Of a DNA stretch of 64,000 bases, positions 6,513 through 64,000 are shown in pieces (within the stretch, counting starts at the first letter, position 1; every line of letters starts with the position of its first letter). The notes under the pieces were generated by a model. That model was not told the DNA's origin. It was given only the letters and a program-made list of their open reading frames with translations, and ran no database searches. The translations under genes and the position numbers were made by a program. The DNA comes from Nitrososphaerota archaeon (GTDB lineage Archaea; Thermoproteota; Nitrososphaeria; Nitrososphaerales; Nitrosopumilaceae). The stretch spans positions 1 to 64,000 of the forward strand of contig JABDDN010000002.1 in assembly GCA_013287585.1 (NCBI GenBank), written 5' to 3'.

Positions 6513-6513
6513 T

Positions 6514-45643: not shown

Positions 45644-46462
45644 CTATGAATTATTTTCTTCTTTTTCTTTAATATGATGATTATCTACATTTGTCTTCTT
45701 TCTTGTTACAAACGCATACCCAAAGGAAATAGAGATTATAGTTACAGCAAGAACAGGTCCTGCCCATTCTGGCAATATGTTCTTACTAGTAATGGTTCCA
45801 TACGATTCAAGTGAAGCAATAGTTACGGCAGCGCCACTTAGAGCATAAGCCATGTATCTAAAACCTTTAATATTGAATATTCTAGAAAATGCAGAACGGA
45901 GAATGATGCTGTCTAAGGTATCAACAGGTATCATTCCCATTGCAAAGAATCCAGCCAGAATCAGTGCTGTTTGAATTCCTACAGTAGCTGATGCAACAGC
46001 AGACAAGGCGATTGCAGAAATTTGTGTAGCAGTATCAAAACCTAAACCAAAAACTAAACCAGTAACAAGAGCAGAACCAATTGGCCCTAGCATTCCAGTT
46101 CTGTTTAGAACCTTGCTAGCAAGTATGGCTGAACCACTTCTTCCCCATTTTTTCATTGCATAGATATTGACAGCTCCGATAGTTCCTAGTGCTATAGCTC
46201 CTATTACACCACCCCAAAATGCAAGATTGTTAATATTTGTGATGCTACCAATTACATATATTATAAAAATCATTTCGGCTAGAACAGATATCATGTGACC
46301 AGAACTAAATCCTGCCCCTACCAAGCGAGATTTTTTTGTAGCATTATGTAGTCTGACCAAATTATCAATTGCAGTTATGTGATCTACGTCAAGACCATGT
46401 CTTATTCCGAGTATGAGCATAGTTGGCATTGATAACAAAACAAATGACCAAGCATCTACCAC
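45644..46462 (-). CDS. NiCoT-family nickel/cobalt permease
   Basis: 272 aa with about eight membrane helices. The NiCoT signature RHGLDVDHITAIDN (Hx4DH) is in helix II, GHMISVLAEMIF is the second signature, and LVFGLGFDTATQ the third. Imports Ni2+ (and Co2+) across the cytoplasmic membrane. Its position 4-9 kb from the urease genes fits nickel supply to urease; the His-containing tail (DNHHIKEKEE) is cytoplasmic. Two GTAAACT(A/G)C elements lie 110-150 bp upstream. Confidence 0.92.
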   Translation of the reverse strand: MVDAWSFVLLSMPTMLILGIRHGLDVDHITAIDNLVRLHNATKKSRLVGAGFSSGHMISVLAEMIFIIYVIGSITNINNLAFWGGVIGAIALGTIGAVNIYAMKKWGRSGSAILASKVLNRTGMLGPIGSALVTGLVFGLGFDTATQISAIALSAVASATVGIQTALILAGFFAMGMIPVDTLDSIILRSAFSRIFNIKGFRYMAYALSGAAVTIASLESYGTITSKNILPEWAGPVLAVTIISISFGYAFVTRKKTNVDNHHIKEKEENNS

Positions 46463-48524: not shown

Positions 48525-50222
48525 TTAATAATAATGATGAGATGGTCGTTGCATCTTACCAAGCTTATCAAAGTGATCATGTGACTTGTTTCCTTTTGCA
48601 TGAGAATGAGTAGTACCATCACCATGGGTGTGAGTGTACATGGCAGGTTTTTTCATAACAACTTCATCTACACGAATTAATAGTGACGCTACTTCAACGG
48701 CTGTTTTAATTATTTGTTCTTTTACCACAAGAGGTTCTATAACGCCTTTTGAGTACATTTCTCCAACTTTTCTCTCAATTGCATCTATTCCGTACCATGA
48801 GTGAACACTTCCATTGTTGTGTTCAGAGTTTTTGTTTCTCAATTGAGCAATTGAGTCAACTAGATTCATTCCAGAATTTCTAGCTAAGGTTAATGGAATT
48901 TCTTCTAGAGCTTCAGCAAAATTTTGAATTACGGTTTGTTCTCTTCCTTCAATCAAAAATGATCTTTTTCTAAGCTCATTTGCAATAATTGTTTCAGTGG
49001 AACCTCCACCAGCTACTATTGATGGACTGATAAAGAAGTCGTTTAGAACCATAATAGCATCAAGTACTGAACGATGATACTCATCAAGTATTCTTTTAGA
49101 AGTTGCTCTCAATAAGATAGTAACTGATTTTGGGTTTTTACATCCCTCTACAAATACCATTTTGTCATCGCCTACGAATTTTTCATAAACTTTGCCTGCA
49201 AACCCCAGATGTTTTTCAGTTATGTTATCAAGATCATTTGTTATTAGACCACCACTTGCTTTTGATAGCCAATGGAGATCATTTTCTTTTACTCGACGAA
49301 GTGATATTATGCCTGCCCTAGACAAATAGTGTTGAGCCAATAGACTGATCCCTTTTTGGGAAATTACAACATTTGTACCAGAATTGATTATCTTTTGAGT
49401 TTTTTCCTTGACATCATCATTTTCTTTTGAAATGTATGTTTGCATTTCTTGTGGAGTGTTGATTGTTATTTCTGCATCAGTTTTGGTTCTCTCATTATCA
49501 AGTTCTTCGTTAATCAAAAGAATCTTGGCATTCTCAATTAATCTTGGCATAGCAGAATTATCTATTGTTTTGTCAATAACTACTCCTCTGACTAGTTCAA
49601 TATCTGATGTATTGCCAGGTTTTTCTTCTATCTTTATATCATCTAGCTCAACTTTTTTATTTGCAAAATCTGTTATTGTACAAAATGCCTCAGTCACTAA
49701 TTCCGCTACAGATTTTTTTTCACATAGTATCGAAATAGCCTTTGATCGTAAACATGTTTCAGCTAATCTAATCATCACTTCTTTATTTTTATGATTAGAT
49801 GATTTCGCAATTGATCTTACAATATCAAGTGACTGTTCTGCTGCTTTTTTGTATCCTGCCTCAATTGTAGAAGGAGACATACCAAAATCCAATAATTTTT
49901 CTGCTTTTTCAAGAAGAGAACCAGCTAAAACAACTACAGATATTGTTCCATCTCCTACTTCATTATCAACTGAATTTGATGCGTCTATCATCGCCTTGGC
50001 GGCAGGGTGCTCAACGTCAATTTTGCGTAACATTGTAGAACCACTTTTAGTAAGAGTAACTTCACCCAAAAGATCAATGTACATTTTTTCAAATCCTCTT
50101 GGTCCGAATGAACTTTTGATGAGATCTGCAATCAATTTGCCTGCAAGTAGATTGTATCTTCTAACCTCATCTCCTACAGAATATTGTGTATCGTCTCCAA
50201 GCAAGTCTCCTGTAGAACTCAT
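48525..50222 (-). CDS. Divergent thermosome (group II chaperonin) paralogue with His-rich tail
   Basis: 565 aa, full-length group II chaperonin. LLGEVTLTKSGSTML stands where typical thermosomes have TNDGATIL, so the catalytic Asp (GroEL Asp52 equivalent) is Ser. NEVGDGTISVV is the P-loop-like motif (usually GDGTTT), and SIVAGGGSTETIIA and HRSVLDAI keep the second Asp. The last 36 residues are YTHTHGDGTTHSHAKGNKSH and DHF...SHHYY, eight histidines, instead of the usual GGM-rich tail. It has its own TATA box (TTTATAATTA, about 50246-50255) and lies 75 bp from ureD. It may be a structural or specialised chaperonin subunit; a nickel-linked role is inference. Confidence 0.88.
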   Translation of the reverse strand: MSSTGDLLGDDTQYSVGDEVRRYNLLAGKLIADLIKSSFGPRGFEKMYIDLLGEVTLTKSGSTMLRKIDVEHPAAKAMIDASNSVDNEVGDGTISVVVLAGSLLEKAEKLLDFGMSPSTIEAGYKKAAEQSLDIVRSIAKSSNHKNKEVMIRLAETCLRSKAISILCEKKSVAELVTEAFCTITDFANKKVELDDIKIEEKPGNTSDIELVRGVVIDKTIDNSAMPRLIENAKILLINEELDNERTKTDAEITINTPQEMQTYISKENDDVKEKTQKIINSGTNVVISQKGISLLAQHYLSRAGIISLRRVKENDLHWLSKASGGLITNDLDNITEKHLGFAGKVYEKFVGDDKMVFVEGCKNPKSVTILLRATSKRILDEYHRSVLDAIMVLNDFFISPSIVAGGGSTETIIANELRKRSFLIEGREQTVIQNFAEALEEIPLTLARNSGMNLVDSIAQLRNKNSEHNNGSVHSWYGIDAIERKVGEMYSKGVIEPLVVKEQIIKTAVEVASLLIRVDEVVMKKPAMYTHTHGDGTTHSHAKGNKSHDHFDKLGKMQRPSHHYY

Positions 50223-50296: not shown

Positions 50297-51202
50297 TTAT
50301 GCAACGTCTATTGATGAATTTGAAATTGTGGGTTCTATTTTATAATTTTTTTTGGTAACACTTCTAAGAATACCAGATACAGATTCTGTTAGAGATATGA
50401 TTTCAGAAACAGAATCAGCAAGTATTCTCACAATAATACCAGAATTATGAGGTAAAGACGAACAACTAGCTAAAAGAGAAATATTTTTGGTAGCTAAATT
50501 AATTTCATCTACAATTCTTTCTATTTGAATAGAACTACCAATTATGTAAATGGTGGAAAAGATATCCTTTCCTCCAAATATAGATTCAAGATTTGCTTTA
50601 TCTTTATGACTCAAACTCATGACATCTGTAAATAGCATCTGACCATTCCTATGAGCTGAAGTGCGAAGGAAACAAAGATCAAAATCAAATTTTTCACCAG
50701 ATGCAATCCTACCAGCAGATATAATTTCAGAGTATACCAGAACCGCATTTCCCTCAACTTCAAGATTTACTTCCTGATAAAATCGAGATGACTTGAATGG
50801 TATGATCTGATGTGGAATAAATTCCAGATAGCTTCCTTCTTGATTATGTATACTAATGTATTGAGAAGCATAACCATCCTCCATCTTGTAAATTTTGGTT
50901 GCTGATTGAGTGGTAATTCTTGCTGCAGAATTTGTACCCATGACAACATCAATTTTCTGTTCATCTCCCTGCAAAATACCTCCAGAAGATGACATCATGT
51001 AGATGTGAGCAAAATTTGGATAATCTGTATCAGGGTATATCGCTTTTTGAATCAAAAATGGTGCTTTTGACAGTAGTGATTTAATGTATGTTTTAGAATC
51101 ATCATTTACTTGAAGCTCTATCTCTATGGTACCATTCTGACCTGGCATCTTTAATTTCTTGTTTACATAATTCTTGAAAATATCTGGAATTTGCGAATTC
51201 AT
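50297..51202 (-). CDS. ureD: Urease accessory protein UreD (UreH)
   Basis: 301 aa. SSGGILQGDEQKIDVVMGTNSAARITTQSATKIYKM is the UreD signature region, and YLEFIPHQIIPFKSSRFYQ follows. UreD docks on the urease apoprotein and recruits UreF/UreG for nickel insertion. Its ATG overlaps the ureG stop (ATGA). Last gene of ureEFGD. Confidence 0.93.
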   Translation of the reverse strand: MNSQIPDIFKNYVNKKLKMPGQNGTIEIELQVNDDSKTYIKSLLSKAPFLIQKAIYPDTDYPNFAHIYMMSSSGGILQGDEQKIDVVMGTNSAARITTQSATKIYKMEDGYASQYISIHNQEGSYLEFIPHQIIPFKSSRFYQEVNLEVEGNAVLVYSEIISAGRIASGEKFDFDLCFLRTSAHRNGQMLFTDVMSLSHKDKANLESIFGGKDIFSTIYIIGSSIQIERIVDEINLATKNISLLASCSSLPHNSGIIVRILADSVSEIISLTESVSGILRSVTKKNYKIEPTISNSSIDVA

Positions 51203-51864
51203 CTGATTCGATCCTTTTTGACAATTGGTTTTTTGTCAAACAGTATTGATTTGATTATGTTTTCGGCAACAAGCTCTATGCCCTCACCTGTTTGACAGTT
51301 AACAAACACGTAAGATTTCTCTGCTCGTATTTTTTTTGCATCTCTTTCCATTACAGCAAGATCTGCTCCTACATGTGCTGCAAGATCAATCTTGTTGATT
51401 ACAAGCAAATCACTACTTTCTATTCCCAATCCACCTTTTCTTGGATACTTGTCTCCACCAGCCACATCTATTATGTAAATGAAATAATCTGCAAGAGCGG
51501 GGCTAAAAGTAGTCATGACATTGTCGCCACCACTTTCAATGATAATCAAATCAAGACTAGGATCCTTTTTTTCGATCTCATCAATTACTGCTAAATTTAT
51601 TGTCGGATCTTCACGTATAGCAGTATGAGGACACCCACCAGTAGCTATTCCTATGATCATATTTTCAGGCATAACTTTCAACTCTGTAGATAACGTTCGC
51701 TGCATTCTTTCTGCATCTTCCTTTGATATTACATCATTTGATATTATACAACATCTGTAACCTCTTTTTATGAGAATGGGTACCACTCTCTCAATTAGAC
51801 GTGTTTTTCCTGATCCTACCGGCCCGCCAATTCCAAGTTTTGGTATTTTTTTATTTTTTAACAT
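51199..51864 (-). CDS. ureG: Urease accessory GTPase UreG
   Basis: 221 aa. GIGGPVGSGKTRLIERV (P-loop), IATGGCPHTAIREDP (the CPH nickel-binding motif), LIIIESGGDNVMTTF and VINKIDLAAHVGADL are the UreG/SIMIBI signatures. No His-rich N-terminal extension as found in some bacterial UreG. It delivers nickel with GTP hydrolysis. Located between ureF and ureD. Confidence 0.95.
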   Translation of the reverse strand: MLKNKKIPKLGIGGPVGSGKTRLIERVVPILIKRGYRCCIISNDVISKEDAERMQRTLSTELKVMPENMIIGIATGGCPHTAIREDPTINLAVIDEIEKKDPSLDLIIIESGGDNVMTTFSPALADYFIYIIDVAGGDKYPRKGGLGIESSDLLVINKIDLAAHVGADLAVMERDAKKIRAEKSYVFVNCQTGEGIELVAENIIKSILFDKKPIVKKDRIR

Positions 51865-51881
51865 CTAGATTTACCTCTAAA

Positions 51882-52583
51882 TTATGTAATGAACATTTTA
51901 GAATCATCATGCTCATGAATCATTTGAAAAATATCTGTCACAGGCGTTAGTTGCCAAAGACTGTTTAACGATTCTTTCTTAATGCTCTCTGAAATAGAAT
52001 TAATCTTGTCAGCAAGCGTTGTTAGAATTATCTGACCGCTTATGTGTTCTATTATTCCCAATCTAATTGCTGCTGCTATGACACTTTGGCTAAATGAATA
52101 AAGCATCATGCGTACACCGCTTTTAGCTGGAATGTCCAAAAGATTTGCAGCTATTCCTAAACAAACAGGATACGTCCCAACAGTTTCATTAGATGTTATT
52201 TTCTTTTGAAAATTTTTTGCAATGTTGTTTTTCTTTTTGTCAAATGTCATTTGAATAATACAATTCAGTATTTGGGAACCAGTTCTAACAGATGTGTTTC
52301 TTACTTCTCGTATGAGTCTCATCGAATAGAATCTATTATCTGCTTCCACAAGTTCTTCAATGTTTTCATTCTTTGCAGCCTCCATAGCAATCAAGAAAAC
52401 CATGCAATCGCAAGGTACAAGTTGAAATTCTATCTGCTGTTCAATAAAATTCAAAACATCTTGTTTGTTTTTGATTCTGTCATGCTTTACAAGTGACTCT
52501 AGACCATTTGATAGCCCAAACATGCCAGACGGAAAAAAAGAATCTGCCAGCTGCATTAAAAAAAACTCGTGATCAGTGTTCAT
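51882..52583 (-). CDS. ureF: Urease accessory protein UreF
   Basis: 233 aa from ATG 52583 (MNTDHEFFLMQLADSFFPSG); an ATG at 52598 would add five residues. DSFFPSGMFGLSNGLESLV is the UreF N-terminal motif, and helical segments including TYPVCLGIAANLL follow. Bridges UreD and UreG in the activation complex. Overlaps ureE by 11 bp from the chosen start. Confidence 0.9.
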   Translation of the reverse strand: MNTDHEFFLMQLADSFFPSGMFGLSNGLESLVKHDRIKNKQDVLNFIEQQIEFQLVPCDCMVFLIAMEAAKNENIEELVEADNRFYSMRLIREVRNTSVRTGSQILNCIIQMTFDKKKNNIAKNFQKKITSNETVGTYPVCLGIAANLLDIPAKSGVRMMLYSFSQSVIAAAIRLGIIEHISGQIILTTLADKINSISESIKKESLNSLWQLTPVTDIFQMIHEHDDSKMFIT

Positions 52584-53079
52584 GCATATACATTCCATGT
52601 TGAGGTTGAAAAATCTGCTCCCCTACCTCAATCTCTAGATTATTCATAACACCAACCAGTAGTTTCTTAAATATTTCAACTTCAGAATATGCCTGAATTG
52701 GAAAGTATAGGACATCATCACTGATCACAATTGGTTTGTGCCTGTTTCCTATAATATGACCTAGAGTAACTAATCCAGTTGGGTTTTTCTTTAATTTCTT
52801 TATTCTTATAGAAATCACTTTCTCTGGCAACTGTTCAATTATAATGAATTTTTTGAGATTTGATACTATAACATCGCCATGATGCAATCTTGTTCCAGAA
52901 TCAAGAATAAGACCTATATCTGTACCAAGATCTGTTTTCTTTCTAATTCTACTTCTTTCTAACTCAAGACGTGCTATTTTTAGTCTTTCACATCTTTTTT
53001 TGGATTCCATTTGTTTGAATTTAGTCATTAGTTTTTTGTCATCAAAAATATTTCCTATTACAGATATTATGGTAAGCAT
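52573..53079 (-). CDS. ureE: Urease nickel metallochaperone UreE
   Basis: 168 aa. An N-terminal peptide-binding-like domain (ERLKIARLELERSRIRKKT, TRLHHGDVI) is followed by the metal-binding domain with LGHIIGNRHKPIVI, whose GNxH is the conserved nickel site. The tail HGMYMHEH has only three His, so it lacks the long His-rich nickel store of many bacterial UreE. A TATA box at 53101-53110 gives a leaderless start. Confidence 0.93.
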   Translation of the reverse strand: MLTIISVIGNIFDDKKLMTKFKQMESKKRCERLKIARLELERSRIRKKTDLGTDIGLILDSGTRLHHGDVIVSNLKKFIIIEQLPEKVISIRIKKLKKNPTGLVTLGHIIGNRHKPIVISDDVLYFPIQAYSEVEIFKKLLVGVMNNLEIEVGEQIFQPQHGMYMHEH

Positions 53080-53154: not shown

Positions 53155-53472
53155 ATGATAGATATTGATATGATGCTTACCCCTAGAGAAATTGATAAAC
53201 TCTATATTTTTATGACGGCTGAAGTTGCACGAAGAAGAAAGGCAAGAGGGTTGAAGCTCAATTATGTAGAAGCTTTAGCGCTTATTGCAGATCACATCGT
53301 TGAGGGAGCTAGAGATGGAAAATCTGTTTCAGAACTAATGAGCTCAGGAAGAAAAGTGTTAACAAAAGATGATGTGTTACCTGGTGTTCCTGAGTTGATT
53401 AAAACAGTACAAACTGAAGCAACTTTTGATGATGGAACTAAGCTTGTCACAGTTCACGATCCCATAGTATAG
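53155..53472 (+). CDS. ureA: Urease gamma subunit
   Basis: 105 aa, typical Ure[43 protein letters not shown] and the C-terminal [18 protein letters not shown] are family signatures. First gene of ureABC, 2 bp before ureB. Urease hydrolyses urea to ammonia and carbamate; in an ammonia oxidiser the ammonia fuels energy metabolism. Confidence 0.97.
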
Positions 53473-53474
53473 CA

Positions 53475-53846
53475 ATGATCCCTGGAGAATATTTCTTAAA
53501 TGATACGCCTATTATTGCAAATAAAGGTAAGAAAACAATAAAGATCAAGATCAGTAATTCTGGAGACAGACCAATACAGGTAGGTTCTCATACACATTTC
53601 TTTGAAACTAACAAGGCTCTTGTCTTTTCTCGTGAGAAGGCATACGGTTATCATTTGAACATACCAGCAGGAACATCAGTTAGATTTGAACCAGGTGACA
53701 CAAAAGGGGTAGAACTAACAGAGTATGGTGGCATAAAAACAGTATATGGATTCAACGGTCTTGTTAATGGTAAACTCATTACTAAAAAGCAGACTGCATT
53801 AAAAAAAATGCGAAAAAAAGGATTCAAAAATATTGATCAGAAATGA
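53475..53846 (+). CDS. ureB: Urease beta subunit
   Basis: 123 aa. [39 protein letters not shown] and [10 protein letters not shown] are UreB signatures. Slightly longer than bacterial UreB because of a basic tail. Overlaps ureC by 4 bp (ATGA). Confidence 0.97.
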
Positions 53847-55555
53847 CATTGATAATTCCTAGAAAACAATATGTTGATCTTTATGGTCCTACCAAGGGTG
53901 ACAAAATTAGGCTAGCTGATACTGATCTTATAATTGAAATTGAAAAAGATTTTCAAAATTATGGAGACGAGATAGTTTTTGGTGGTGGTAAAAGTGCCAG
54001 AGATGGAATGGGACAAGCAAGTGGTGTTACTAGTAGAGGTGCACTTGATCTAGTAATAACAAATGCAATTATTATGGATCCTGTTCTTGGGATTATCAAA
54101 GTAGATATTGGTATTAAAAATGGGTTAATATTCGGAATAGGAAAAGCAGGTAATCCAAACGTTATGGATGGAGTAGACATGATAATATCTGCAAACACGG
54201 AGGTAATAGCTGGAGAACATACCATATGCACTCCTGGAATAATTGATACTCACATTCATTTTATTTCTCCACAACAAGTCGTAGAAGCAATTTGTAGTGG
54301 AACTACAACAATGATAGGTGGTGGCACAGGACCTGCTGATGGTACTAAAGCAACAACATGTACTCCCGGTCCTTGGAATATTCACAGAATGCTTGAAGCT
54401 CTTGATGACCTGCCACTAAATTTCGGTCTATTAGGAAAAGGAAATGATTCCATGGAACCTGCACTAATAGAACAAATTGCTGCAGGAGCTTGTGGTTTGA
54501 AATTACATGAAGATTGGGGTTCTACTCCTGCCACTATTGATGCAGCATTACGTGTTGCGGATAAAACTGACACTCAGGTAGCTATCCATACAGACACGCT
54601 AAATGAATGCGGTTTCGTTGATGATACTATTGAAGCAATAGCCGGAAGAACAATTCATACTTATCACACCGAAGGGGCTGGTGGTGGACATGCACCTGAT
54701 ATCATGAAAATAGCAGGTAAGAAAAACATCCTTCCTTCTTCTACAACTCCAACAAGACCGTTTACGGTTAATACTCTAGATGAGCACATAGATATGATGA
54801 TGGTTTGTCATCATCTAAATCCCTCTGTAAGAGAGGATGTGGCTTTTGCAGAGTCGAGAATCAGAGGTGAAACAATAGCTGCGGAAGATGTACTACATGA
54901 CATTGGTGCTCTAAGCATGTATTCCTCTGATAGTCAAGCAATGGGTAGAGTTGGAGAAGTAAGCATTAGAACATGGCAAACAGCCGATAAAATGAAAAAA
55001 ATGTCTGGTAGTTTAACAGAAGAATTAGGAGATAATGATAATCTTCGTGTGAAAAGATATCTTTCAAAGATCACCATCAACCCAGCAATAACACATGGAA
55101 TCTCTGATTATGTGGGTTCTTTAGAGCCAGGAAAATTAGCTGATATCGTGATTTGGAGTCCTGAGTTCTTTGGAGTGAAACCTAAAATGGTAATAAAAGG
55201 CGGGTTTATAGCTTATTCTTTAATGGGTGATCCCAATGCATCAATTCCAACACCTGAGCCAGTGTATTACCGTCCAATGTTTGGTGCACTTGGAAAGGCA
55301 ATACATACTACATCTGTAACTTTTACTTCAAAACTAGCAATACGAAATGGCCTATCAAAAAAAATAGGTTTGAAAAAGAAATTACTTCCAGTTAAAAATT
55401 GTAGAAAGATTGGTAAGAAAAATATGCTTTACAATAATCTAGTTCCAAAAATAGAGATTGATCCTGAAACTTACAAAGTTACAGTTGATGGAAAACTAGC
55501 GACAACAGAACCATCTCAAAAACTAGCCATGGCAAGATTGTATCACTTGTTTTAG
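53843..55555 (+). CDS. ureC: Urease alpha (catalytic) subunit
   Basis: 570 aa. Nickel ligands and catalytic residues are all recognisable: HIHFISP, the carbamylated Lys in [37 protein letters not shown]-type segment (here [17 protein letters not shown]), MVCHHLNP (flap His) and [12 protein letters not shown] (Asp ligand). Length and motif spacing are normal, so an active urease is expected. The stop TAG is followed at once by a TTCGACAATCGAA palindrome. Confidence 0.98.
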
Positions 55556-56577: not shown

Positions 56578-56871
56578 TTAATTTGACAAAGCAGGAAGAT
56601 CAAGAGTCATTTTCTCACCCAATCCTGCCTTTAGGAGCAGTCTGAAAGTTAATGAGATATCACTTCTTGTTATGTCTGGCATGTGAGTTACTCCTCCCTC
56701 ATGCTTTAGATCATTTATGAAATCAAATATTTCGTCTACTGTAACAGGTTCATTTTCAAATCCTAATTCATTGTTTACAGCATTATACGTTGCAATGTAA
56801 TAACTTAGAACAGATGCTTTGCTTAGAAATTCTTCAGTTTTTGTATCAAATCCAATACTGATTCTTTCCAT
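56578..56871 (-). CDS. 97-aa helical protein, unknown
   Basis: IGFDTKTEEFLSKASVLSYYIATYNAVNN, PVTVDEIFDFINDLKHEGG and SDISLTFRLLLKAGLGEKM suggest an all-helical fold. No family recognised. Upstream, GTAAACTAC (56921) and GTAATCTAC (56954) lie 33 bp apart, the same pair seen before the nickel permease, so it may belong to the same regulon. Confidence 0.5.
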   Translation of the reverse strand: MERISIGFDTKTEEFLSKASVLSYYIATYNAVNNELGFENEPVTVDEIFDFINDLKHEGGVTHMPDITRSDISLTFRLLLKAGLGEKMTLDLPALSN

Positions 56872-56920
56872 AGTTCAAACTACTACTTTCAAAAATGATT
56901 TAAAGTTTAGGGTAAAAAAT

Positions 56921-56962
56921 GTAAACTACTGATTTACAGCGGAAAAATGATGCGTAATCTAC
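56921..56962 (+). promoter_or_regulatory. Paired GTAA(A/T)CTAC elements, 33 bp apart
   Basis: GTAAACTAC at 56921-56929 and GTAATCTAC at 56954-56962. The second is part of TGCGTAATCTAC, whose exact 12-bp reverse complement occurs before agmatinase at 60728-60739. They lie 50-91 bp before the 97-aa gene and about 105-145 bp before the parB-like gene. Confidence 0.45.
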
Positions 56963-57065
56963 ATTTTACTTGAAAGTTGTTGTAAATATTGCATATTTGA
57001 GTGATAAAACGGTCTAAAACAAAGAGAAGGAAATTATAAATAGATTTAGTAATCAAATAGAATTT

Positions 57066-57815
57066 GTGAAGATCAAAAATATTCCTCTTAAGCTTATAGA
57101 TATAGCAGATGAAAATGTTCGAAAAGATCATCCTTTTGGAAAAGATGCTAGAGATCAATTAATTAAAGAACATTTGTCCAAGTTCGAACTACTGCAACCA
57201 GTGGTTGTTAGATTTGATAATGCAAGTAAGAGATACAAGCTGCTAATTGGTCGTAGAAGATTTCTATCACTAAGTGCAAAGGGATCAAGAGAGATACCTG
57301 CAGTAATAACTGAGCTTGAAGGTGCAGAAGCAGAAGCTGCATCATTGTTTGAAAATCTAATCCGTAAAGATCTACCACCAATTGAAAAAGCAAAGATGGT
57401 AAAGAAATTGGTGGATTCAACGGAATCAGGCATTACAGGTGTCTCTAAAAAATATGGATTATCAAAGAGTACGGTTAGTGAATGGCTAAGCGTTCTCACA
57501 TTAGCAGAACCATTGCAGCAAGCAATAGAAAGTGGAGAAATAACACTTTATGAAGCAATACAAATTGCAAGAAAGCCAAAATCACTGCAAGATAAATTGG
57601 TAAATGCAGTATCTAATGGAAAGCTTCAAGAAGTAATGATAAAAAGTGGAGTAAAACGTGGAGCACCAAAAGGTCTCTTGACCATCCGTCTTGTTTTCAA
57701 TCCTAAGAAGAAATTTGACAAAAAGATTTGGGATCAATTAAATGAACAAGCGTCTGAAAATGGACTTGAAGTCACTGATTATGTCAAGAATTTACTAGTA
57801 AAGCGTCTTAATTAG
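57066..57815 (+). CDS. ParB-like DNA-binding protein
   Basis: 249 aa from a GTG. ParB N-domain: LQPVVVRF, YKLLIGRRRFLS (GxRR of the CTP-binding motif), and LFENLIRKDLPPIEKAKMVKKLVD (the ENxxRxDLxPIE motif). Then a helix-turn-helix, ITGVSKKYGLSKSTVSEWLSVLTL, about residues 122-145. The C-terminus (FDKKIWDQLNEQASENGLEVTDYVKNLLVKRL) looks like a ribbon-helix-helix or dimerisation unit. No parA partner is nearby. It ends directly before a 17-bp palindrome, the place plasmid parS sites often occupy relative to parB. A partition, nucleoid or regulatory role is possible. Confidence 0.85.
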   Translation: MKIKNIPLKLIDIADENVRKDHPFGKDARDQLIKEHLSKFELLQPVVVRFDNASKRYKLLIGRRRFLSLSAKGSREIPAVITELEGAEAEAASLFENLIRKDLPPIEKAKMVKKLVDSTESGITGVSKKYGLSKSTVSEWLSVLTLAEPLQQAIESGEITLYEAIQIARKPKSLQDKLVNAVSNGKLQEVMIKSGVKRGAPKGLLTIRLVFNPKKKFDKKIWDQLNEQASENGLEVTDYVKNLLVKRLN

Positions 57816-57830
57816 TTCGACAATCGAACT
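57814..57830. promoter_or_regulatory. Palindrome AGTTCGA-CAA-TCGAACT (copy 2)
   Basis: AGTTCGACAATCGAACT has 7-bp perfect arms and begins inside the stop codon of the parB-like gene. The core TTCGACAATCGAA (57816-57828) is identical to copy 1. It is not followed by a clear T-run, and lies between convergent genes, which favours a protein-binding site over a promoter element. Confidence 0.5.
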
Positions 57831-57939
57831 CGTCGTTTAAGAGCAATTTTATGGTCATCTACATTGTACAGTATTGATAGTTACATTCTTTTGCGATATT
57901 TTTTATTATCATTACGTTTGAGAGTCTAAAATCGTCATT

Positions 57940-59532
57940 TTATGCTGCTCCTCCGTGATTACCTCTACCAACTTGTCTTATGTCAATAGGGTTAACCCAA
58001 TCTTTTACATCTGCACCGGTAACAACATCAGAATCATTTGGTATGAGATACACAACTTCATGTCGCGGTTGGTATCTCTTTTGTGTTGCAAGGCTTACCA
58101 ATATGAAAATTGGAAGCGAAACTAATGGTGGAATAATTGTATCTAGTCCAGCATAAGCTACATATGGACTAGTACTAGGAGCATTAGTGATAAGGAAGAA
58201 TAGGATTAATCTCAACACAGAACCTACAACAATTGATGCTACAGCTCCAGCTGCGTTTGATTTTTTCCAGAATGTTCCAAAGACTAGAGGTACAAGACAG
58301 CCTGCCAAGACAATATCAAATGCTAGTATCAAATAAACACCAGGTCTTGGAATTAGATAACCTAATGCAAAGGCAGTAAAGAACATCGGAATAACGAAAA
58401 GTCTAGTAGATAGCAACAATTGTCTGTCAGTTAGTTTTTCTCTTTTCAAAAATCTTGTAACTATGTTACGTTGTAACATGTTTCTTGCTAGCACACTAGC
58501 AATTGCTAACGTTCCTCCATTTGCTGTAGACATACCACAACTTATTGTACTTACAAGCATCAAGATACCAATTACTGCTGGCAGGTGCTTTATAGCTATA
58601 ATTGGATAGAGAGTGTACGGATCATCTTTGACAACCTGCGGTTCAAGCGTAAGTCCAATTATTCCCATCATTGTAGTAGGAATAAGTATCAAGAGAGTTA
58701 ATCCTGCAGCCATGTAAGAGCCCTTTTGAGCTGTTCGTCCACCATCTGCAGCAAATACACGTTCCATAAAGTCTAGTGCAACAATGTCTCCCACACCTAA
58801 CGATATTATGCTTGCCCAATTAACTAACGCACCATTACCAAGATCATACAGACCAGACATGTCCATGAAGTTACCAGGTGCATTTGCCACTATGGTTTCC
58901 AGTCCACCTGGAATAGGCGACCATGGGCCAATGAAAAAGATAAAGCCTGCCCAGAATCCAACCACTGCCAGATAGATGTGGAAGATATCAGTGTACGCAC
59001 ATGAGAATAACCCACCAAAATACGTATACAACAATACTACAACAGTAGAAATCAACATAGCATAAATCAACGGTATACCCAAAACTACAGATAGAATGTA
59101 ACCACTTGCACCAAGGTTTCCAGCTACAAGTACTATGAAACTTATTGACATCAAAGTGCCTGACATGACTTCAGTAACATTTCCATAACGCCTATAGTAG
59201 AAATCTGCTAGCGTAATCATATTCATTCGATTAAATCTTTTTCCAAAGAAAGCACCTGTTAAAACAAGACAAATCGCCAAACCAAGCGGTATGACTGCAC
59301 CGCCCCAGAACCCAAACGAAGCTGACAACGACACATTTCCAAGCGATGCATTACCATCAACTGCTTCAGAAACCAACATTGTGCCAATAAAAAATAATGG
59401 CAAGCTCTTACCTGCTACAATGTAACGTTTACTACTTTTCTTAACAAATTTTACTGCAAGAACACCAATGGCAGCAGTAGCAGCGACGAATAATAGAACT
59501 ATAACTGGATAATAGAGAGGTATATCCGCCAT
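57940..59532 (-). CDS. SSS-family sodium:solute symporter, urea transporter (DUR3-like) candidate
   Basis: 530 aa from ATG 59532 (MADIPLYYPVIVLLFV), placed by a TATA-rich element at 59553-59566; the open frame continues to 59619 but past the promoter. About 13-15 membrane helices. SKRYIVAGKSLPLFFIGTML, NMITLADFYYRRYGN, VSTISCGMSTANGGTLAIASVLARN and GSYMAAGLTLL are family blocks. The 'GLAFSSADG/SCGMSTANGGT' region and a soluble C-terminus fit DUR3-type urea permeases; proximity to urease supports urea, but other solutes cannot be excluded. Confidence 0.82.
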   Translation of the reverse strand: MADIPLYYPVIVLLFVAATAAIGVLAVKFVKKSSKRYIVAGKSLPLFFIGTMLVSEAVDGNASLGNVSLSASFGFWGGAVIPLGLAICLVLTGAFFGKRFNRMNMITLADFYYRRYGNVTEVMSGTLMSISFIVLVAGNLGASGYILSVVLGIPLIYAMLISTVVVLLYTYFGGLFSCAYTDIFHIYLAVVGFWAGFIFFIGPWSPIPGGLETIVANAPGNFMDMSGLYDLGNGALVNWASIISLGVGDIVALDFMERVFAADGGRTAQKGSYMAAGLTLLILIPTTMMGIIGLTLEPQVVKDDPYTLYPIIAIKHLPAVIGILMLVSTISCGMSTANGGTLAIASVLARNMLQRNIVTRFLKREKLTDRQLLLSTRLFVIPMFFTAFALGYLIPRPGVYLILAFDIVLAGCLVPLVFGTFWKKSNAAGAVASIVVGSVLRLILFFLITNAPSTSPYVAYAGLDTIIPPLVSLPIFILVSLATQKRYQPRHEVVYLIPNDSDVVTGADVKDWVNPIDIRQVGRGNHGGAA

Positions 59533-59552
59533 GTTCTTTGTAATTAGTAATT

Positions 59553-59566
59553 GTATATTATTAAAT
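59553..59566 (-). promoter_or_regulatory. TATA element of the SSS transporter gene
   Basis: Minus-strand TTTAATAATATA-type element about 26 bp before the ATG at 59532. It decides the start against longer in-frame options. A TTCGA palindrome lies about 37 bp further upstream, in the position of an activator site. Confidence 0.5.
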
Positions 59567-59593
59567 ATGACGGTTTTGAGTCTTTTCAGATAG

Positions 59594-59606
59594 TTCGACT
59601 GTCGAA
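59594..59606. promoter_or_regulatory. Palindrome TTCGA-CTG-TCGAA (copy 3)
   Basis: TTCGACTGTCGAA, same arms as copies 1 and 2 with a different 3-bp spacer, about 62-74 bp before the transporter start codon. It also lies about 110 bp after the end of the zinc-finger gene, so a role for that gene is less likely. Confidence 0.5.
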
Positions 59607-59718
59607 TATCAATATACAAAATTCAAAAAAAAGGCTAAGAAATTGTGTTTTTTGTGGATTTGTCAATTGTTCAAACACTCAACATGAGCAATAACAGATT
59701 AGAACCAGAAAAGGAAAA

Positions 59719-59901
59719 TTATATTCTATGATCTCTGGCCATGTGCATTCGAAATGCGGATTCATTTTCAAATGATTCATCACATGTTATACACAAATAG
59801 GTAGTTTTTTTATCATGCAAGTCTTGAGCGTGTTTTAAAAGATCTTCCCTATCTTTGAAAATAGCACCACATGCTCCACAGCCATATTTTGTGCCAAACA
59901 T
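59719..59901 (-). CDS. Two-finger C2H2 zinc-finger protein
   Basis: 60 aa. CGACGAIFKDREDLLKHAQDLH and CITCDESFENESAFRMHMARDH are two classical C2H2 fingers (C-x2-C-x12-H-x3/4-H). Such tiny C2H2 proteins are widespread in ammonia-oxidising archaea and probably bind nucleic acid. Single-gene unit. Confidence 0.75.
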   Translation of the reverse strand: MFGTKYGCGACGAIFKDREDLLKHAQDLHDKKTTYLCITCDESFENESAFRMHMARDHRI

Positions 59902-59998
59902 TCTCTTAATAGCAAGTTCTCAATTAATAAATTTCTTCTTCATGTAGTTAAGACAGATTCTTTATGTTCATGGGCTATTGTACTAGGTAAATAAATAA

Positions 59999-60508
59999 TT
60001 ATGTCATTTTCTTTAGCTTTGAATAAAGGAATGGATCAAGTTTCCTTGCTGTATCAAAACACTTTTGTCCTTCATTAGCTTTATTTAGCATTGCTAACGC
60101 CCTACCTTTGTTATACCAAGCTTTTGCGTACTTTTCATTGTTCTCTATTGCTCTATCAAAGCATTCAATTGCTTCCACTAACCTTTTTAATTTAATCAAT
60201 GTCAATCCTTTATTATGCCATGTAATAGGATTGGTAGAATCAATTGCAATTGCATGAGAAAATGATTCTAAAGCCTCATCTGTTCTTCCCAATTTATCTA
60301 AAATCAAACCTTTATCACCCCATGCAAAATCATTGTTTGGTGAAACCTGTATAGCTTTATCAAAATATTCCAAGGCTTTCTCTGGTTGTCTTTGATTTGC
60401 CAGATCTTCACCATACTTGACATATTCTTCAGAAGCTTCTTTTCTGCTATGCCTAAATTTGTATTCTGGAGAAGATAAATTATTTTTTTTTCTTAACCAG
60501 CTAAACAT
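59999..60508 (-). CDS. TPR-repeat protein
   Basis: 169 aa with three to four tetratricopeptide repeats: ALEYFDKAIQVSPNNDFAWGDKGLILDKLGR, ALESFSHAIAIDSTNPITWHNKGL, AIECFDRAIENNEKYAKAWYNKGRALAML. The N-terminus is short and basic. A protein-interaction adaptor; partner unknown. Confidence 0.85.
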   Translation of the reverse strand: MFSWLRKKNNLSSPEYKFRHSRKEASEEYVKYGEDLANQRQPEKALEYFDKAIQVSPNNDFAWGDKGLILDKLGRTDEALESFSHAIAIDSTNPITWHNKGLTLIKLKRLVEAIECFDRAIENNEKYAKAWYNKGRALAMLNKANEGQKCFDTARKLDPFLYSKLKKMT

Positions 60509-60519
60509 ATTGAATAACT

Positions 60520-60651
60520 CTATGTATTTTCTGTTTTATGCAATTCATCTTCTTTTTTGTCCCCCTTAAGGCCTACAGTTCCCATGAACAAAAAGAAACC
60601 GCTTGCAACTAATATTGCTGCAAACATTGCATAAACTCCTGTTAAATCCAT
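60520..60651 (-). CDS. 43-aa single-TM protein
   Basis: MDLTGVYAMFAAILVASGFF is one hydrophobic helix, followed by a charged tail (GDKKEDELHKTENT). A TTTTAAATAC box (minus strand, about 60672-60681) lies 26 bp before the ATG, which supports expression as a leaderless small gene. Function unknown. Confidence 0.55.
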   Translation of the reverse strand: MDLTGVYAMFAAILVASGFFLFMGTVGLKGDKKEDELHKTENT

Positions 60652-60727
60652 TAGGACATTATTAATTCTAATGTATTTAAAATTTTATTGCATCAAGTTT
60701 TCAGACAAATTTTTTCTGAAATAACAC

Positions 60728-60736
60728 GTAGATTAC
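60728..60736 (-). promoter_or_regulatory. GTAATCTAC element (minus strand) before agmatinase, distal
   Basis: Reads GTAGATTAC on the plus strand at 60728-60736, inside GTAGATTACGCA, the 12-bp reverse complement of 56951-56962. About 120 bp before the agmatinase ATG. Confidence 0.4.
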
Positions 60737-60775
60737 GCAGTATTCACCATAATTTGAAAATCAAATACGAAAAAG

Positions 60776-60788
60776 TTCGACTGCAGAA
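60776..60788. promoter_or_regulatory. Degenerate TTCGA palindrome (copy 4)
   Basis: TTCGACTGCAGAA matches copy 3 at 11 of 13 positions, with the right arm altered. It lies about 70-80 bp before the agmatinase start, similar to copy 3 before the transporter. Confidence 0.35.
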
Positions 60789-60800
60789 CTATTCGAAAAC

Positions 60801-60809
60801 GTAGATTAC
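60801..60809 (-). promoter_or_regulatory. GTAATCTAC element (minus strand) before agmatinase, proximal
   Basis: Plus-strand GTAGATTAC at 60801-60809, 73 bp from the distal copy, just upstream of the TATA-like ATTTAAGT (about 60818-60825) and 47 bp before the ATG. Confidence 0.4.
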
Positions 60810-60855
60810 TTAGACAAATTTAAGTAGATACTAATCTATTACTAAATCGATAAAT

Positions 60856-61974
60856 ATGGGAATGGAATTCTATGGAGATTCATACAAGGGTAATGATGAA
60901 CCAATTTTTGTTGGTATACCAACGTTCTTGAAATTGCCTTGGTTAAGAAGTAAAGCAGAGTTGGAAAAGGTACGACCAGATGTAGCGGTAATAGGTGAAC
61001 CTTTTGATTTTGGAACAACTATCAGACCAGGTGCCAGATATGGACCAAGAGCTATAAGAGCAGCTTCAACTGTACCTTCTCCTCCATACGAACATTTCAA
61101 CATAGAAACAGGTGTTGACCCATTTGGAGTTTTCAGAACAGTTGATTATGGAGATGTTAATATTTCACCAGGCGATGTAGTAGAATCCCACAGAAGAATG
61201 ACTGACAAAGTCAAAGAAGTATTAGACGTTGATGGAATTCCAGTCATGCTTGGTGGTGATCACTCTATTACTTTTGCAAATGTACGAGCATTTGCAAAAA
61301 AGTACAAAAACATAGGAATGATTCACATTGATACACATGCTGATTGTGCCCCACAGGGTCTGTGCGGTTTCAAGTATGATCATGGAGCTCACATTAGAAG
61401 AATAATGGAATTAGGATGTCTGAAAGGAAAAAATTACACCCTAATTGGACCTCGAGGCTATTGGCCTGGACCAGATCTATACAAGTGGATGGCAGATCAA
61501 GACTTTCAATGGTTTACTATGCTAGATGTTGAGGAGTTAGGAATTGATAGGATTGCAAAAGAAGCGGCAGATAGAGCTAACGATAATGTCGATGCAGTGT
61601 ATATCAGCTGGGATATTGATACGTTTGATCCAGCATATGCCCCAGGAACAGGAGAACCTGAGCCAAACGGCTTGACATCAAGAGAAGGAATGAGATTAAT
61701 GAGATTGCTTTCCACATCATTTGATCCAGACAAGTTTGCATTTGATCTTGTAGAAGTTGCACCAAACTATGATGTAAGTGATGGAAACTCTTACAATGGA
61801 GGAATTACATCAGGCCTAGCAAACAGATTGATCGTAGAACTTCTCGCAGGATTATCTCTTACTAAGAAAGGCCAAACTGAAGGCAAACCGGTAAGACCAC
61901 ATGCGTATCGTGGAAAAAATCACACATATGACTTTGGAAATGGTCCAAAGGCACAGATTCCAAAAAGAAATTGA
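60856..61974 (+). CDS. Agmatinase-family ureohydrolase
   Basis: 372 aa, longer than usual agmatinase (about 290-320). GIPTFLKLP, IRPGARYGPRAIRAAS, GGDHSIT (metal His136), HIDTHADC (Asp159, His161, Asp163) and SWDIDTFDPAYAPGTGEPE (Asp253, Asp255) give the full two-metal site. The family hydrolyses guanidino compounds to release urea: agmatine, guanidinobutyrate, arginine or, in a nickel-dependent branch, guanidine. The presence of arginine decarboxylase favours agmatine; the N-terminal 40-residue and C-terminal 40-residue extensions leave other substrates open. Its TGA overlaps the start of a urease-gamma-like gene (TTGA). Confidence 0.88.
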   Translation: MGMEFYGDSYKGNDEPIFVGIPTFLKLPWLRSKAELEKVRPDVAVIGEPFDFGTTIRPGARYGPRAIRAASTVPSPPYEHFNIETGVDPFGVFRTVDYGDVNISPGDVVESHRRMTDKVKEVLDVDGIPVMLGGDHSITFANVRAFAKKYKNIGMIHIDTHADCAPQGLCGFKYDHGAHIRRIMELGCLKGKNYTLIGPRGYWPGPDLYKWMADQDFQWFTMLDVEELGIDRIAKEAADRANDNVDAVYISWDIDTFDPAYAPGTGEPEPNGLTSREGMRLMRLLSTSFDPDKFAFDLVEVAPNYDVSDGNSYNGGITSGLANRLIVELLAGLSLTKKGQTEGKPVRPHAYRGKNHTYDFGNGPKAQIPKRN

Positions 61975-62369
61975 TTAGAATTGAGATAGTGGTAAAGGGA
62001 GAATCGGATCTTTCCTTTACCAAATTGTTTGAATTCAGAAATGAAGACGATGCAATTTTTCATAATGTCGTAGAATTAGTCAAGGACAAACTCTCGAAAA
62101 ATTTGAAACTAAACGTCAATGAAGCTTTGTCAGTATATTGTGCGTACATAGTAAGTGAAATACGTTCAAACAAATCTGAATCAGAAATAGTAAATAATTC
62201 ATCAAAAATTTTAACAAGAGATAATGTTTTAATCGGAGTTCCAGAAACATTAAGAGAAATTACATTCAATATCACTTTAGATAATTTTCCAAAAAAGATA
62301 ATTAAATATATTGAACCAATTCCAACTGCAAATTACATAATGGTAGATTCTGAAGCAAATGAGAATTAA
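61971..62369 (+). CDS. Urease gamma (UreA)-like orphan protein coupled to agmatinase
   Basis: 132 aa from a TTG that overlaps the agmatinase stop. Residues 45-118 align with UreA residues 31-104 with about 28-29 identities in 74 positions by eye, without gaps: NLKLNVNEALS vs [17 protein letters not shown] vs KSVSEL, KILTRDNVLIGVPE vs [14 protein letters not shown]. The N-terminal 30 residues and the C-terminal 15 differ. The real ureA is 8 kb away in a complete operon, so this is a second, diverged copy in an operon with a urea-producing enzyme. No ureB/ureC-like partner follows. Role unknown. Confidence 0.8.
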   Translation: MIRIEIVVKGESDLSFTKLFEFRNEDDAIFHNVVELVKDKLSKNLKLNVNEALSVYCAYIVSEIRSNKSESEIVNNSSKILTRDNVLIGVPETLREITFNITLDNFPKKIIKYIEPIPTANYIMVDSEANEN

Positions 62370-62397
62370 TCAGTTATGAAAAGAAAGAAAAATTGAT

Positions 62398-62568
62398 GTG
62401 AATTTGAAGGAGATATACTGTCGTAACTGTAAAAAATCATTTGGTAGGTACAATGAAAAATATTTTAATGATAAATCTATTGAAAAAATGATAAACGAGT
62501 ATTGTTCGTTACATGTATTTTACGGGCATTATATAATTATTAGAAAGATGTCTGAGATGCTCACATAG
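62398..62568 (+). CDS. 56-aa zinc-finger-like protein
   Basis: From GTG 62398: IYCRNCKKSFGRYNEKYF and EYCSLHVFYGHY give a CxxC ... CxxH set, likely one zinc site. It follows the UreA-like gene by 28 bp on the same strand and could be in that operon. Short and without a clear promoter or ribosome-binding site, so expression is uncertain. Confidence 0.4.
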   Translation: MNLKEIYCRNCKKSFGRYNEKYFNDKSIEKMINEYCSLHVFYGHYIIIRKMSEMLT

Positions 62569-62645
62569 ATGCACACAAAAACCATCAGTCACTAAAAATG
62601 GAAAATTTAGTCATTTTTCTATTGGATTTATGCGGTATGTAAGTA

Positions 62646-62719
62646 TGGGTCCACAGGGATTCGAACCCTGGATCTTCGCCGTGTAAGGGCGACGTCATAA
62701 CCGGCTGGACTATGAACCC
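62646..62719 (-). tRNA. tRNA-Val (anticodon UAC)
   Basis: 74 nt. Acceptor GGGTTCA/TGGACCC with discriminator A, anticodon stem TCGCC/GGCGA enclosing CTTACAC, so the anticodon is TAC. T arm CAGGG-TTCGAAT-CCCTG. CCA not encoded. Confidence 0.94.
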
Positions 62720-62808
62720 AAGCAAATTCCAATTAGAAATGCATTTAAACTTTGAGAATTTTATATGAAAAGAAAAACGCAGAAATTATCACCAACTGAA
62801 TTCAAAAT

Positions 62809-63822
62809 ATGAATGAGATTGTTTTCTTTTCAAGTCCAATAGGTCTTGGACATACAACACGAGACATAGCTATTGCTCAATATCTTGATAAAAATTCTAT
62901 AAAATTTATCAGTGGTAAGGGAGGATCAAAGTTATTTTCAGAATATGGTTTTGATATAGAAGACTTGTACCATCCTCCTCCTTTTGCAATCAATAACGGT
63001 AAATTACAAAAGCCATTAAATTGGCTTTTCAAATATTATTCATATTATAAGGAATGTAAGGCCATATCATCAAATATAATAGAAAAAGAAAAACCAAATC
63101 TCATAGTTAGTGATGAGGATTTTGCATCACTTACAATAGGACAGGAAAAAAAACTAAGAACAGTATTGATTACCGATATTTTAGAAACAAAATTTGTACG
63201 TGGAATTGGTTCTTTAATTGAAAAAAGGATGAATCGTTCAATGAAAGAGATAATTCAAAAATGTGATCTTGTAATTTTACCGGAAAATGGTCCTAATGAA
63301 GACAACATTGTAAGAGTTGGACCAATAGTAAGAAGTATCATACAGACAAGAGAAGAATTAAGAAAGAAGTTTTTGTTCAATAAAAAAACAATTGTTGTAA
63401 GCATAGGAGGAACAAATGCAGGAAAATTTTTAATTGATATAGTGATTGATATATTTGAAAAAATAAAATTAGATGCAGAACTTGTCATTGTCTCAGGACC
63501 ATCATTAAAAATTCACAATGATAAGATACGAAATCTTGGTTTTGTAAATAATTTACATGAAATCATTTACGCGGCAGATTTGATAATTTCTCTTGCAGGC
63601 AAATCAACAATTGATGAATCTAAAAACTATGGAACACCCGGTATTTTCATACCAATAAAGGGACATTTTGAACAAGAAGAAAATGCAAAAAAAGCTGGTT
63701 TTTCTTTTGATGATCTTTTCCGTTTAGAATCTTTGATTCCAGAAAAAATTAATGAGAAAAGAATTCAAACAAATTTTGATGGTGCTCAGAAAGCTGCAAA
63801 TCTGATAAAAAAGATATTATGA
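62809..63822 (+). CDS. MurG/GT28-like glycosyltransferase
   Basis: 337 aa GT-B fold. The N-terminal FSSPIGLGHTTRDIAIAQYL is the GxGH acceptor motif. The C-terminal half has VSIGGTNAGKFLIDI, LGFVNNLHEIIYAADLIISLAGKSTIDESKNYGTPGIFIPI (donor-binding segment) and HFEQEENA. Similar archaeal proteins transfer sugars from UDP donors to lipids or glycans. Single-gene unit here; acceptor unknown. Confidence 0.85.
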   Translation: MNEIVFFSSPIGLGHTTRDIAIAQYLDKNSIKFISGKGGSKLFSEYGFDIEDLYHPPPFAINNGKLQKPLNWLFKYYSYYKECKAISSNIIEKEKPNLIVSDEDFASLTIGQEKKLRTVLITDILETKFVRGIGSLIEKRMNRSMKEIIQKCDLVILPENGPNEDNIVRVGPIVRSIIQTREELRKKFLFNKKTIVVSIGGTNAGKFLIDIVIDIFEKIKLDAELVIVSGPSLKIHNDKIRNLGFVNNLHEIIYAADLIISLAGKSTIDESKNYGTPGIFIPIKGHFEQEENAKKAGFSFDDLFRLESLIPEKINEKRIQTNFDGAQKAANLIKKIL

Positions 63823-63966
63823 TTAGTTGTTTTGTTGAAAATTAATACAGCCAGTTATTTCCTTACATAACGATTCATTATGCACTAAACCTACCTCAGG
63901 AACATATTGTAAAATATGATTTGTATTTTTGTCTTTGAATAGTTCACCTTGTATAAGGTCACTCAA
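63823..63966 (-). CDS. 47-aa protein, unknown
   Basis: From TTG 63966: SDLIQGELFKDKNTNHILQY and VGLVHNESLCKEITGCI. A GATAAATTTT-like box lies about 22-26 bp before the TTG. It is tail-to-tail with the glycosyltransferase gene with no gap. Coding potential rests on composition and the promoter position only. The last 34 bases of the window hold nothing else I can support. Confidence 0.38.
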   Translation of the reverse strand: MSDLIQGELFKDKNTNHILQYVPEVGLVHNESLCKEITGCINFQQNN

Positions 63967-64000
63967 TTGAATTCATCTCAAAATTTATCACAAATGACAT

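What the first reader, a model, noticed from the sequence alone, without database searches (positions are those of the whole stretch)
60856..62369. A second, diverged urease gamma-like protein encoded in one operon with an agmatinase-family ureohydrolase
Seen: the TTG of the 132-aa gene overlaps the TGA of the ureohydrolase (TTGA), and its residues 45-118 align ungapped with UreA of this same genome (about 39 % identity by eye). Known: ureohydrolases release urea; UreA has no known role apart from UreB/UreC. Inference: the UreA-like protein could bridge the urea-producing enzyme and urease, regulate one of them, or be a stabilising partner of the hydrolase. I know of no described UreA homologue that works with an agmatinase.
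Basis: partly seen in the sequence, partly recalled or inferred. Interest (0 to 1): 0.85.

Follow-up and report, generated by a model that had tools for sequence, protein, structure and literature searches.

The report
Urease-gamma paralogue partnered with a ureohydrolase
In ammonia-oxidizing archaea a duplicated and much-changed copy of urease's smallest subunit is always encoded directly after an enzyme that releases urea, often followed by a nickel-transporter gene, which suggests that a urease part was re-used to help a second urea-related enzyme, probably with its nickel supply.

Summary
The 132-aa protein (61971-62369) passes the Pfam urease-gamma cut-off (47 bits, E 3e-12) and its AlphaFold model (pLDDT 88) matches solved UreA structures, with an added N-terminal beta-hairpin. 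It is an extra paralogue: the genome also has a normal UreA. In 400 genomes of the order, 80 carry this paralogue. In 79 of them it lies directly downstream of the same ureohydrolase; the 80th is a fragment in a genome without the hydrolase. Purifying selection holds on it (omega 0.15-0.44), about ten times more weakly than on the hydrolase. All 41 hydrolase-bearing genomes that are at least 95% complete and at most 5% contaminated have urease. The wider island has a sodium-solute symporter and, in 33 of 68 loci, a NicO-type nickel transporter just downstream. Best reading: UreA2 is a dedicated accessory or subunit of a probably nickel-dependent ureohydrolase of unknown guanidino substrate, perhaps letting it use urease's nickel-insertion proteins. 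Partnership is well supported; the mechanism is inferred. The hydrolase lacks the guanidine-hydrolase tryptophan, so it is not filed as one. A few lineages lost UreA2 but keep the hydrolase. A joint model failed.

The parts
60856..61974 (+). arginase-superfamily ureohydrolase (372 aa); all six metal ligands and the catalytic Glu present; Glu267 where guanidine hydrolase has Trp305
   Evidence: PF00491; PDB relatives; residue counts
61971..62369 (+). UreA2: urease-gamma paralogue (132 aa, TTG start overlapping the hydrolase stop) with an added N-terminal beta-hairpin (strands 2-9 and 16-22)
   Evidence: conserved adjacency; selection
57940..59619 (-). sodium:solute symporter family (SSS) transporter, found near the hydrolase in AOA (45 of 46 loci with at least 5 kb upstream) and also beside the haloarchaeal homologue
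   Evidence: PF00474; synteny
59999..60508 (-). TPR-repeat protein upstream of the hydrolase, conserved in the island
53155..55555 (+). ureA (53155-53472), ureB (53475-53846), ureC (53843-55555): the true urease
50297..53079 (-). urease accessory genes ureD (50297-51202), ureG (51199-51864), ureF (51882-52598), ureE (52573-53079)
45644..46462 (-). NicO-family nickel transporter of the urease cluster (in many relatives a NicO-type gene lies directly after UreA2 instead)
   Evidence: relatives
48525..50222 (-). thermosome (Cpn60/TCP-1) paralogue with His-rich C-terminal tail, recurrent in the island

Best explanation
UreA2 is a duplicated urease gamma subunit that has become a dedicated partner of one ureohydrolase in ammonia-oxidizing archaea. 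The hydrolase, probably nickel-dependent, splits an imported guanidino compound of unknown identity and releases urea; the neighbouring urease turns that urea into ammonia. UreA2 is made by coupled translation with the hydrolase and most likely binds it. The proposed mechanism is that UreA2 keeps enough of the urease gamma fold to present the hydrolase, or its folding intermediate, to urease's nickel-insertion proteins (UreD/UreF/UreG), in place of the HypA/HypB pair that bacterial nickel ureohydrolases use. Shown: homology and fold, strict adjacency, purifying selection, co-occurrence with urease, frequent adjacency to a nickel transporter. Inferred: physical binding, nickel dependence, recruitment of UreDFG, substrate.
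For: Adjacency: in all 79 genomes with both genes, UreA2 lies immediately 3' of the hydrolase on the same contig (match gap 2-61 bp in 78 of them; Fisher p 2e-68, which overstates independence because genomes are related); overlapping stop/start in many. Purifying selection on UreA2: omega 0.15-0.44 in 21 pairs, against 0-0.05 for the hydrolase. Urease link: hydrolase and UreC co-occur (79 of 92, p 1e-28), and all 41 hydrolase genomes at least 95% complete and at most 5% contaminated have UreC (counted from the tables). Nickel link: a NicO-type transporter starts within 700 bp downstream in 33 of 68 AOA loci with enough sequence (one of the two such proteins scanned passes PF03824, the other has no Pfam match but shares its motifs); a chaperonin with a conserved His-rich tail is in the island; the hydrolase of G398 (L115) ends in a His-rich tail (HIHSHKHGHHAHNH) next to a UreA2 that is intermediate in sequence between UreA and the rest. 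Precedent: the metformin and guanidine hydrolases of this superfamily need Ni2+ and HypA/HypB, and the metformin operon carries a HupE nickel transporter (PMC11399263). No HypA was found in 9 of 11 AOA genomes, only sub-threshold fragments in two. In the urease-UreFD structures the gamma domain is coloured as part of the UreD-contacting surface (PMC10121161).
Against: UreA2 is genuinely absent downstream in at least six surveyed genomes that keep the hydrolase (G374, G584, G642 with NicO directly after it; G475, G481, G503), so the hydrolase can work without it there. Its haloarchaeal homologues have no UreA2 nearby although two such genomes have urease. About 20 positions invariant in UreA vary in UreA2, so any mimicry is partial; the UreD contact proven by mutation in H. 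pylori (Glu177 of HpUreA) lies in the beta, not the gamma, part of that fusion (the assignment to beta is my own knowledge of the 238-aa fusion). In the window's own lineage NicO is not next to UreA2. The six metal ligands do not distinguish Ni from Mn. Nothing shows a physical contact: the joint model failed.
Confidence: 0.4

Rival explanations
1. UreA2 is a structural or regulatory subunit of the ureohydrolase itself (solubility, oligomer assembly or substrate gating), with no part in nickel delivery or urease contact; co-occurrence with urease only reflects the need to use the released urea.
For: Tight translational coupling is typical of subunits. The added N-terminal hairpin and UreA2-specific conserved residues (Gly10, Asp13, a Pro near 15, Arg95, Phe99, Tyr122) could be a new interface. 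Metformin hydrolase shows that a ureohydrolase may depend on a second, non-catalytic subunit (PMC11399263).
Against: The gene is lost in several lineages without loss of the hydrolase, and UreA2 evolves about ten times faster than the hydrolase, odd for an obligate interface. It does not explain why the recruited protein is a urease subunit or why a nickel transporter follows.
Confidence: 0.27
2. UreA2 docks the hydrolase onto urease (into or beside the UreA position) so that urea is handed over directly or the two enzymes are co-regulated: the first reader's bridge.
For: UreA fold kept (TM-score up to 0.83 normalised to UreA); hydrolase always with urease in near-complete genomes; shared gene island.
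Against: Most UreA invariant positions, including the G-A-R-D-G stretch, are not kept, so incorporation into the urease trimer by the UreA interface is doubtful. Urea is small and diffuses freely, so the gain from channelling is unclear. Lost in some urease-plus-hydrolase genomes such as G374.
Confidence: 0.18
3. UreA2 is a nickel or urea sensor, or acts apart from the hydrolase, the operon being only a shared expression unit.
For: Fast evolution and occasional loss; a further, even more divergent UreA-like protein occurs in some Nitrosopumilus-type urease clusters without the hydrolase, so UreA paralogues can live apart from it.
Against: Never found away from the hydrolase; the only case without it is a C-terminal fragment (G386). 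No conserved His/Cys cluster in the alignment.
Confidence: 0.1

Closest known systems
Urease gamma subunit UreA (PF00547; for example 1a5k, 4fur, 5a6t)
   Same: Fold and core motifs (LKLN..E, the GVPE motif, PI near the end); 58 of 61 UreA2 proteins match PF00547.
   Different: Not next to ureB/ureC; below equivalog cut-offs; added N-terminal hairpin in place of the LTPRE start; about 20 UreA-invariant positions free to vary; evolves fast; lies outside the UreA clade in a tree (UreA 97/97).
Ni-dependent guanidine hydrolase GdmH (7esr/7oi1, 9fek) and metformin hydrolase MefH (8snf, 8ryi)
   Same: Ureohydrolase superfamily, among the best PDB hits; accessory genes and a nickel transporter nearby in the bacterial operons.
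   Different: Trp305 of GdmH is replaced by an almost invariant Glu (position 267; 73 of 74 sequences); no HypA found; urease-gamma paralogue instead; metal and substrate unmeasured.
Guanidinobutyrase / guanidinopropionase / agmatinase (3nio, 3nip, SpeB)
   Same: Best PDB hit by sequence is guanidinobutyrase 3nio, E 9e-52; AOA literature annotates this type of gene as SpeB and notes its clustering with an SSS transporter (PMC11131427).
   Different: Below both agmatinase family cut-offs; two other PF00491 proteins exist in this genome; urease-linked; no report found that mentions the UreA-like partner.

Membership tests
Urease gamma subunit (UreA) | Significant match to PF00547 and urease-gamma fold | tested here: met
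   47 bits against cut-off 23.9; 58 of 61 relatives match; Foldseek top 18 hits all urease
Urease gamma subunit (UreA) | Equivalog-level score (TIGR00193, PRK13241) | tested here: not met
   43.1 against 82.3 and 42.3 against 123 bits
Urease gamma subunit (UreA) | Encoded with ureB and ureC; part of the UreABC enzyme | tested here: not met
   Encoded with the hydrolase; a separate true ureA lies in ureABC; physical incorporation not testable here
Ni-dependent guanidine hydrolase (GdmH) | Specificity residues Thr97 and Trp305 of Synechocystis GdmH (PMC11410670) | tested here: not met
   Thr equivalent present in 74 of 74; Trp305 equivalent is Glu in 73 of 74 and Gln in one
Ni-dependent guanidine hydrolase (GdmH) | Ni2+ in the active site | not testable with these tools
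   The six metal ligands are present but do not tell Ni from Mn; only the gene context points to Ni
Agmatinase (TIGR01230) | Equivalog score | tested here: not met
   154.8 against 174.3 bits
Arginase/ureohydrolase superfamily (PF00491) | PF00491 match and conserved binuclear metal site | tested here: met
   267 bits; His136, Asp159, His161, Asp163, Asp253, Asp255 and Glu300 invariant in 74 sequences

The most novel reading that the evidence does not exclude
A urease structural subunit was duplicated and turned into an adaptor that lets an unrelated metalloenzyme fold, a ureohydrolase, borrow urease's nickel-insertion machinery: a new way of sharing a metallochaperone between two consecutive enzymes of one pathway.
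Probability: 0.33. Interest if true: 0.87.

Novelty: new variant of a known kind. Interest (0 to 1): 0.7.

Why it matters
UreA has had no known role apart from UreB/UreC. A conserved urease-gamma paralogue tied to a ureohydrolase would be the first repurposed urease subunit that I know of. It would also mark a dedicated guanidino-nitrogen route in ammonia-oxidizing archaea, organisms central to the nitrogen cycle whose use of organic nitrogen is under study, and it makes a testable prediction about how archaea without HypA load nickel into a second enzyme. If only a stabilising subunit, it is still a new protein family and a corrected annotation for many 'agmatinases'.

Tried and rejected
Joint model of hydrolase plus UreA2: a few loci have the two genes in frame with one stop between them, so a read-through translation could be folded. 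Chance similarity of the 132-aa protein to UreA: rejected. Second ureA of a second urease: rejected. Pseudogene: rejected (omega below 0.45). Guanidine riboswitch near the hydrolase: no Rfam match in 52000-64000 other than a tRNA and an antisense match within ureC. Parallel hydrolase substitutions in UreA2-less lineages as an interface pointer: only position 284 (Leu to Gln in three of four, possibly one event), too weak. UreA2 in haloarchaea: none found near ten homologues.

Full report
Observation. The window holds a 372-aa ORF at 60856-61974 and a 132-aa ORF at 61971-62369, both on the + strand, the TTG start of the second sharing bases with the TGA stop of the first. The 132-aa protein matches Pfam urease gamma (PF00547) with 47.0 bits (cut-off 23.9, E 3.4e-12) over residues 23-105, and the true UreA of the same window (53155-53472) with 36% identity over 83 residues, E 2e-17. 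It is well below the equivalog cut-offs for UreA. The genome, 77% complete, has just these two PF00547 loci. I call the paralogue UreA2.

Fold. An AlphaFold2 model from 61 relatives has mean pLDDT 88.3 and pTM 0.81, with only the last ten residues disordered. Foldseek finds urease gamma subunits and only those at the top (best E 1.8e-6, TM-score 0.83 by target). Residues 2-9 and 16-22 form a beta-hairpin ahead of the helices that UreA lacks; in UreA this stretch is the short LTPRE start. Of positions near-invariant in UreA, only a core is kept (Asn48, Glu51, Leu81, Val86, Val90, Pro116, Ile117, with Gly89, Pro91 and Glu92 also strong in UreA2), while about twenty, including most of the G-A-R-D-G stretch, vary.

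Conservation of the pair. In a survey of 400 genomes of the order, the UreA2 profile separates from UreA (UreA about 50 bits, almost all UreA2 60-198 bits). The hydrolase is in 92 genomes, UreC in 148 and UreA2 in 80. UreA2 and hydrolase occur together in 79 genomes and in all 79 are neighbours on one contig; the remaining genome, G386, has only a C-terminal UreA2 fragment and no hydrolase. Thirteen genomes have the hydrolase but no UreA2 match: in G374, G584, G642, G475, G481 and G503 the gene is really absent; the others end at a contig edge, are partial or chimeric, or have masked bases inside the gene (G507 and G708 judged from match coordinates). Overlapping or nearly touching genes are the rule, and named records span Nitrosopumilaceae, Nitrosotalea, Nitrososphaeraceae, Nitrosocosmicus and Cenarchaeum. 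Nei-Gojobori estimates for 21 pairs give omega 0.15-0.44 for UreA2 and at most 0.05 for the hydrolase: UreA2 is a real, selected, but fast-changing protein. In a tree, UreA is one clade (97/97) and UreA2 lies outside it; the UreA2 of G398 (L115) is an intermediate (72.5 bits to PF00547) nearest to UreA. The backbone among UreA2 lineages is poorly resolved, so one ancient duplication is likely but not proven.

The island. Upstream of the hydrolase in the window lie a TPR protein, a small zinc-finger-like protein and an SSS transporter; further upstream the whole urease cluster, ureABC with ureE, ureF, ureG and ureD, a thermosome paralogue with a His-rich tail, pyruvoyl arginine decarboxylase, deoxyhypusine synthase and a NicO nickel transporter. 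In relatives the same genes recur in varying order. The SSS gene is on 45 of 46 AOA loci with at least 5 kb upstream, and beside the 53% identical haloarchaeal hydrolase, which has no UreA2. A NicO-type transporter begins within 700 bp downstream in 33 of 68 AOA loci with enough sequence, three of them lacking UreA2. The thermosome with its conserved His-rich tail is on 49 loci. Hydrolase and UreC co-occur (79 of 92; the other 13 are drafts), and all 41 hydrolase genomes at least 95% complete and at most 5% contaminated have UreC (my count from the tables). P-values treat genomes as independent, which they are not; the clean adjacency across two families is the stronger argument.

The hydrolase. 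It is a member of the arginase superfamily with the metal ligands His136, Asp159, His161, Asp163, Asp253, Asp255 and the catalytic Glu300 invariant in 74 relatives. Its best solved relatives are guanidinobutyrase (3nio), then guanidine hydrolase GdmH (7esr, 9fek) and others. Of the two residues said to set guanidine specificity, Thr97 and Trp305 (PMC11410670), the first is present and the second is Glu267, also in haloarchaea. It falls below agmatinase cut-offs, and the genome has two other superfamily members. Its substrate is therefore open; the transporter and urease suggest catabolism of an imported guanidino compound. A survey of soil AOA noted the SSS-'SpeB' clustering (PMC11131427) without mention, in the passages read, of a UreA-like partner; searches of the held library found no description of one.

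Mechanism. Bacterial metformin and guanidine hydrolases in this superfamily require Ni2+ and HypA/HypB, and the metformin operon carries a nickel transporter (PMC11399263). AOA genomes with the pair lack HypA (none in 9 of 11; sub-threshold fragments in two) but have urease's UreEFGD. In the urease-UreFD structures the gamma domain is coloured as part of the UreD-contacting surface (PMC10121161). Together with the NicO gene, the His-tailed chaperonin and the His-rich tail of one hydrolase (L115), the simplest reading that explains why a urease subunit, of all proteins, was recruited is that UreA2 links the hydrolase to urease's nickel delivery. This last step is inference (about 0.4). A plain subunit of the hydrolase (0.27) and a bridge to urease (0.18) remain. 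Loss of UreA2 in several lineages shows that it is helpful rather than indispensable. I could not test any contact: the joint model failed for want of a deep hydrolase alignment.

Verdict. Observation confirmed; the interpretation of a conserved functional pairing is supported, the specific roles are not. A new, conserved variant of the urease gamma family with a new association; interest 0.7.

Noticed in passing
window 48525-50222 (-): Thermosome paralogue beside ureD with a His-rich C-terminal tail (THTHGDGTTHSHAKGNKSHDH...HHYY); homologues with the same kind of tail are on 49 related loci, suggesting a chaperonin dedicated to nickel enzymes.
   Followed up: partly
L033:9239-9634, L034:3118-3516, L035:7901-8272: A third, even more divergent UreA-like protein (about 22-25% identity to UreA2) in some Nitrosopumilus-type urease clusters, between a putative secreted protein and a Dur3-like symporter, also in genomes without the hydrolase.
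   Followed up: partly
L115 (G398), reverse strand about 5150-6774: Hydrolase with a long His-rich C-terminal extension, followed by a UreA2 intermediate between UreA and the other UreA2 proteins and a NicO transporter.
   Followed up: partly
L117:6570-6701 (G386): C-terminal remnant of UreA2 left next to a NicO gene in a genome without the hydrolase: the pair seems to decay together.
   Followed up: partly
L195:7364-8473: Hydrolase with an internal TAG at codon 227 in one draft genome; sequencing error or decay, UreA2 intact.
   Followed up: no
window 53997-54284 (-): Rfam 5_ureB_sRNA (RF02514, 45.6 bits, gathering 40) antisense to ureC; may only reflect conserved ureC coding sequence.
   Followed up: no
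window 46747-48407: Deoxyhypusine synthase and pyruvoyl-dependent arginine decarboxylase next to the urease accessory genes: a possible agmatine source near the urea genes.
   Followed up: no
L199:7022-11089 and L200:7093-11089: In haloarchaea the SSS transporter and a PhoU/AbrB-like gene precede the 53% identical hydrolase, with no UreA2.
   Followed up: partly
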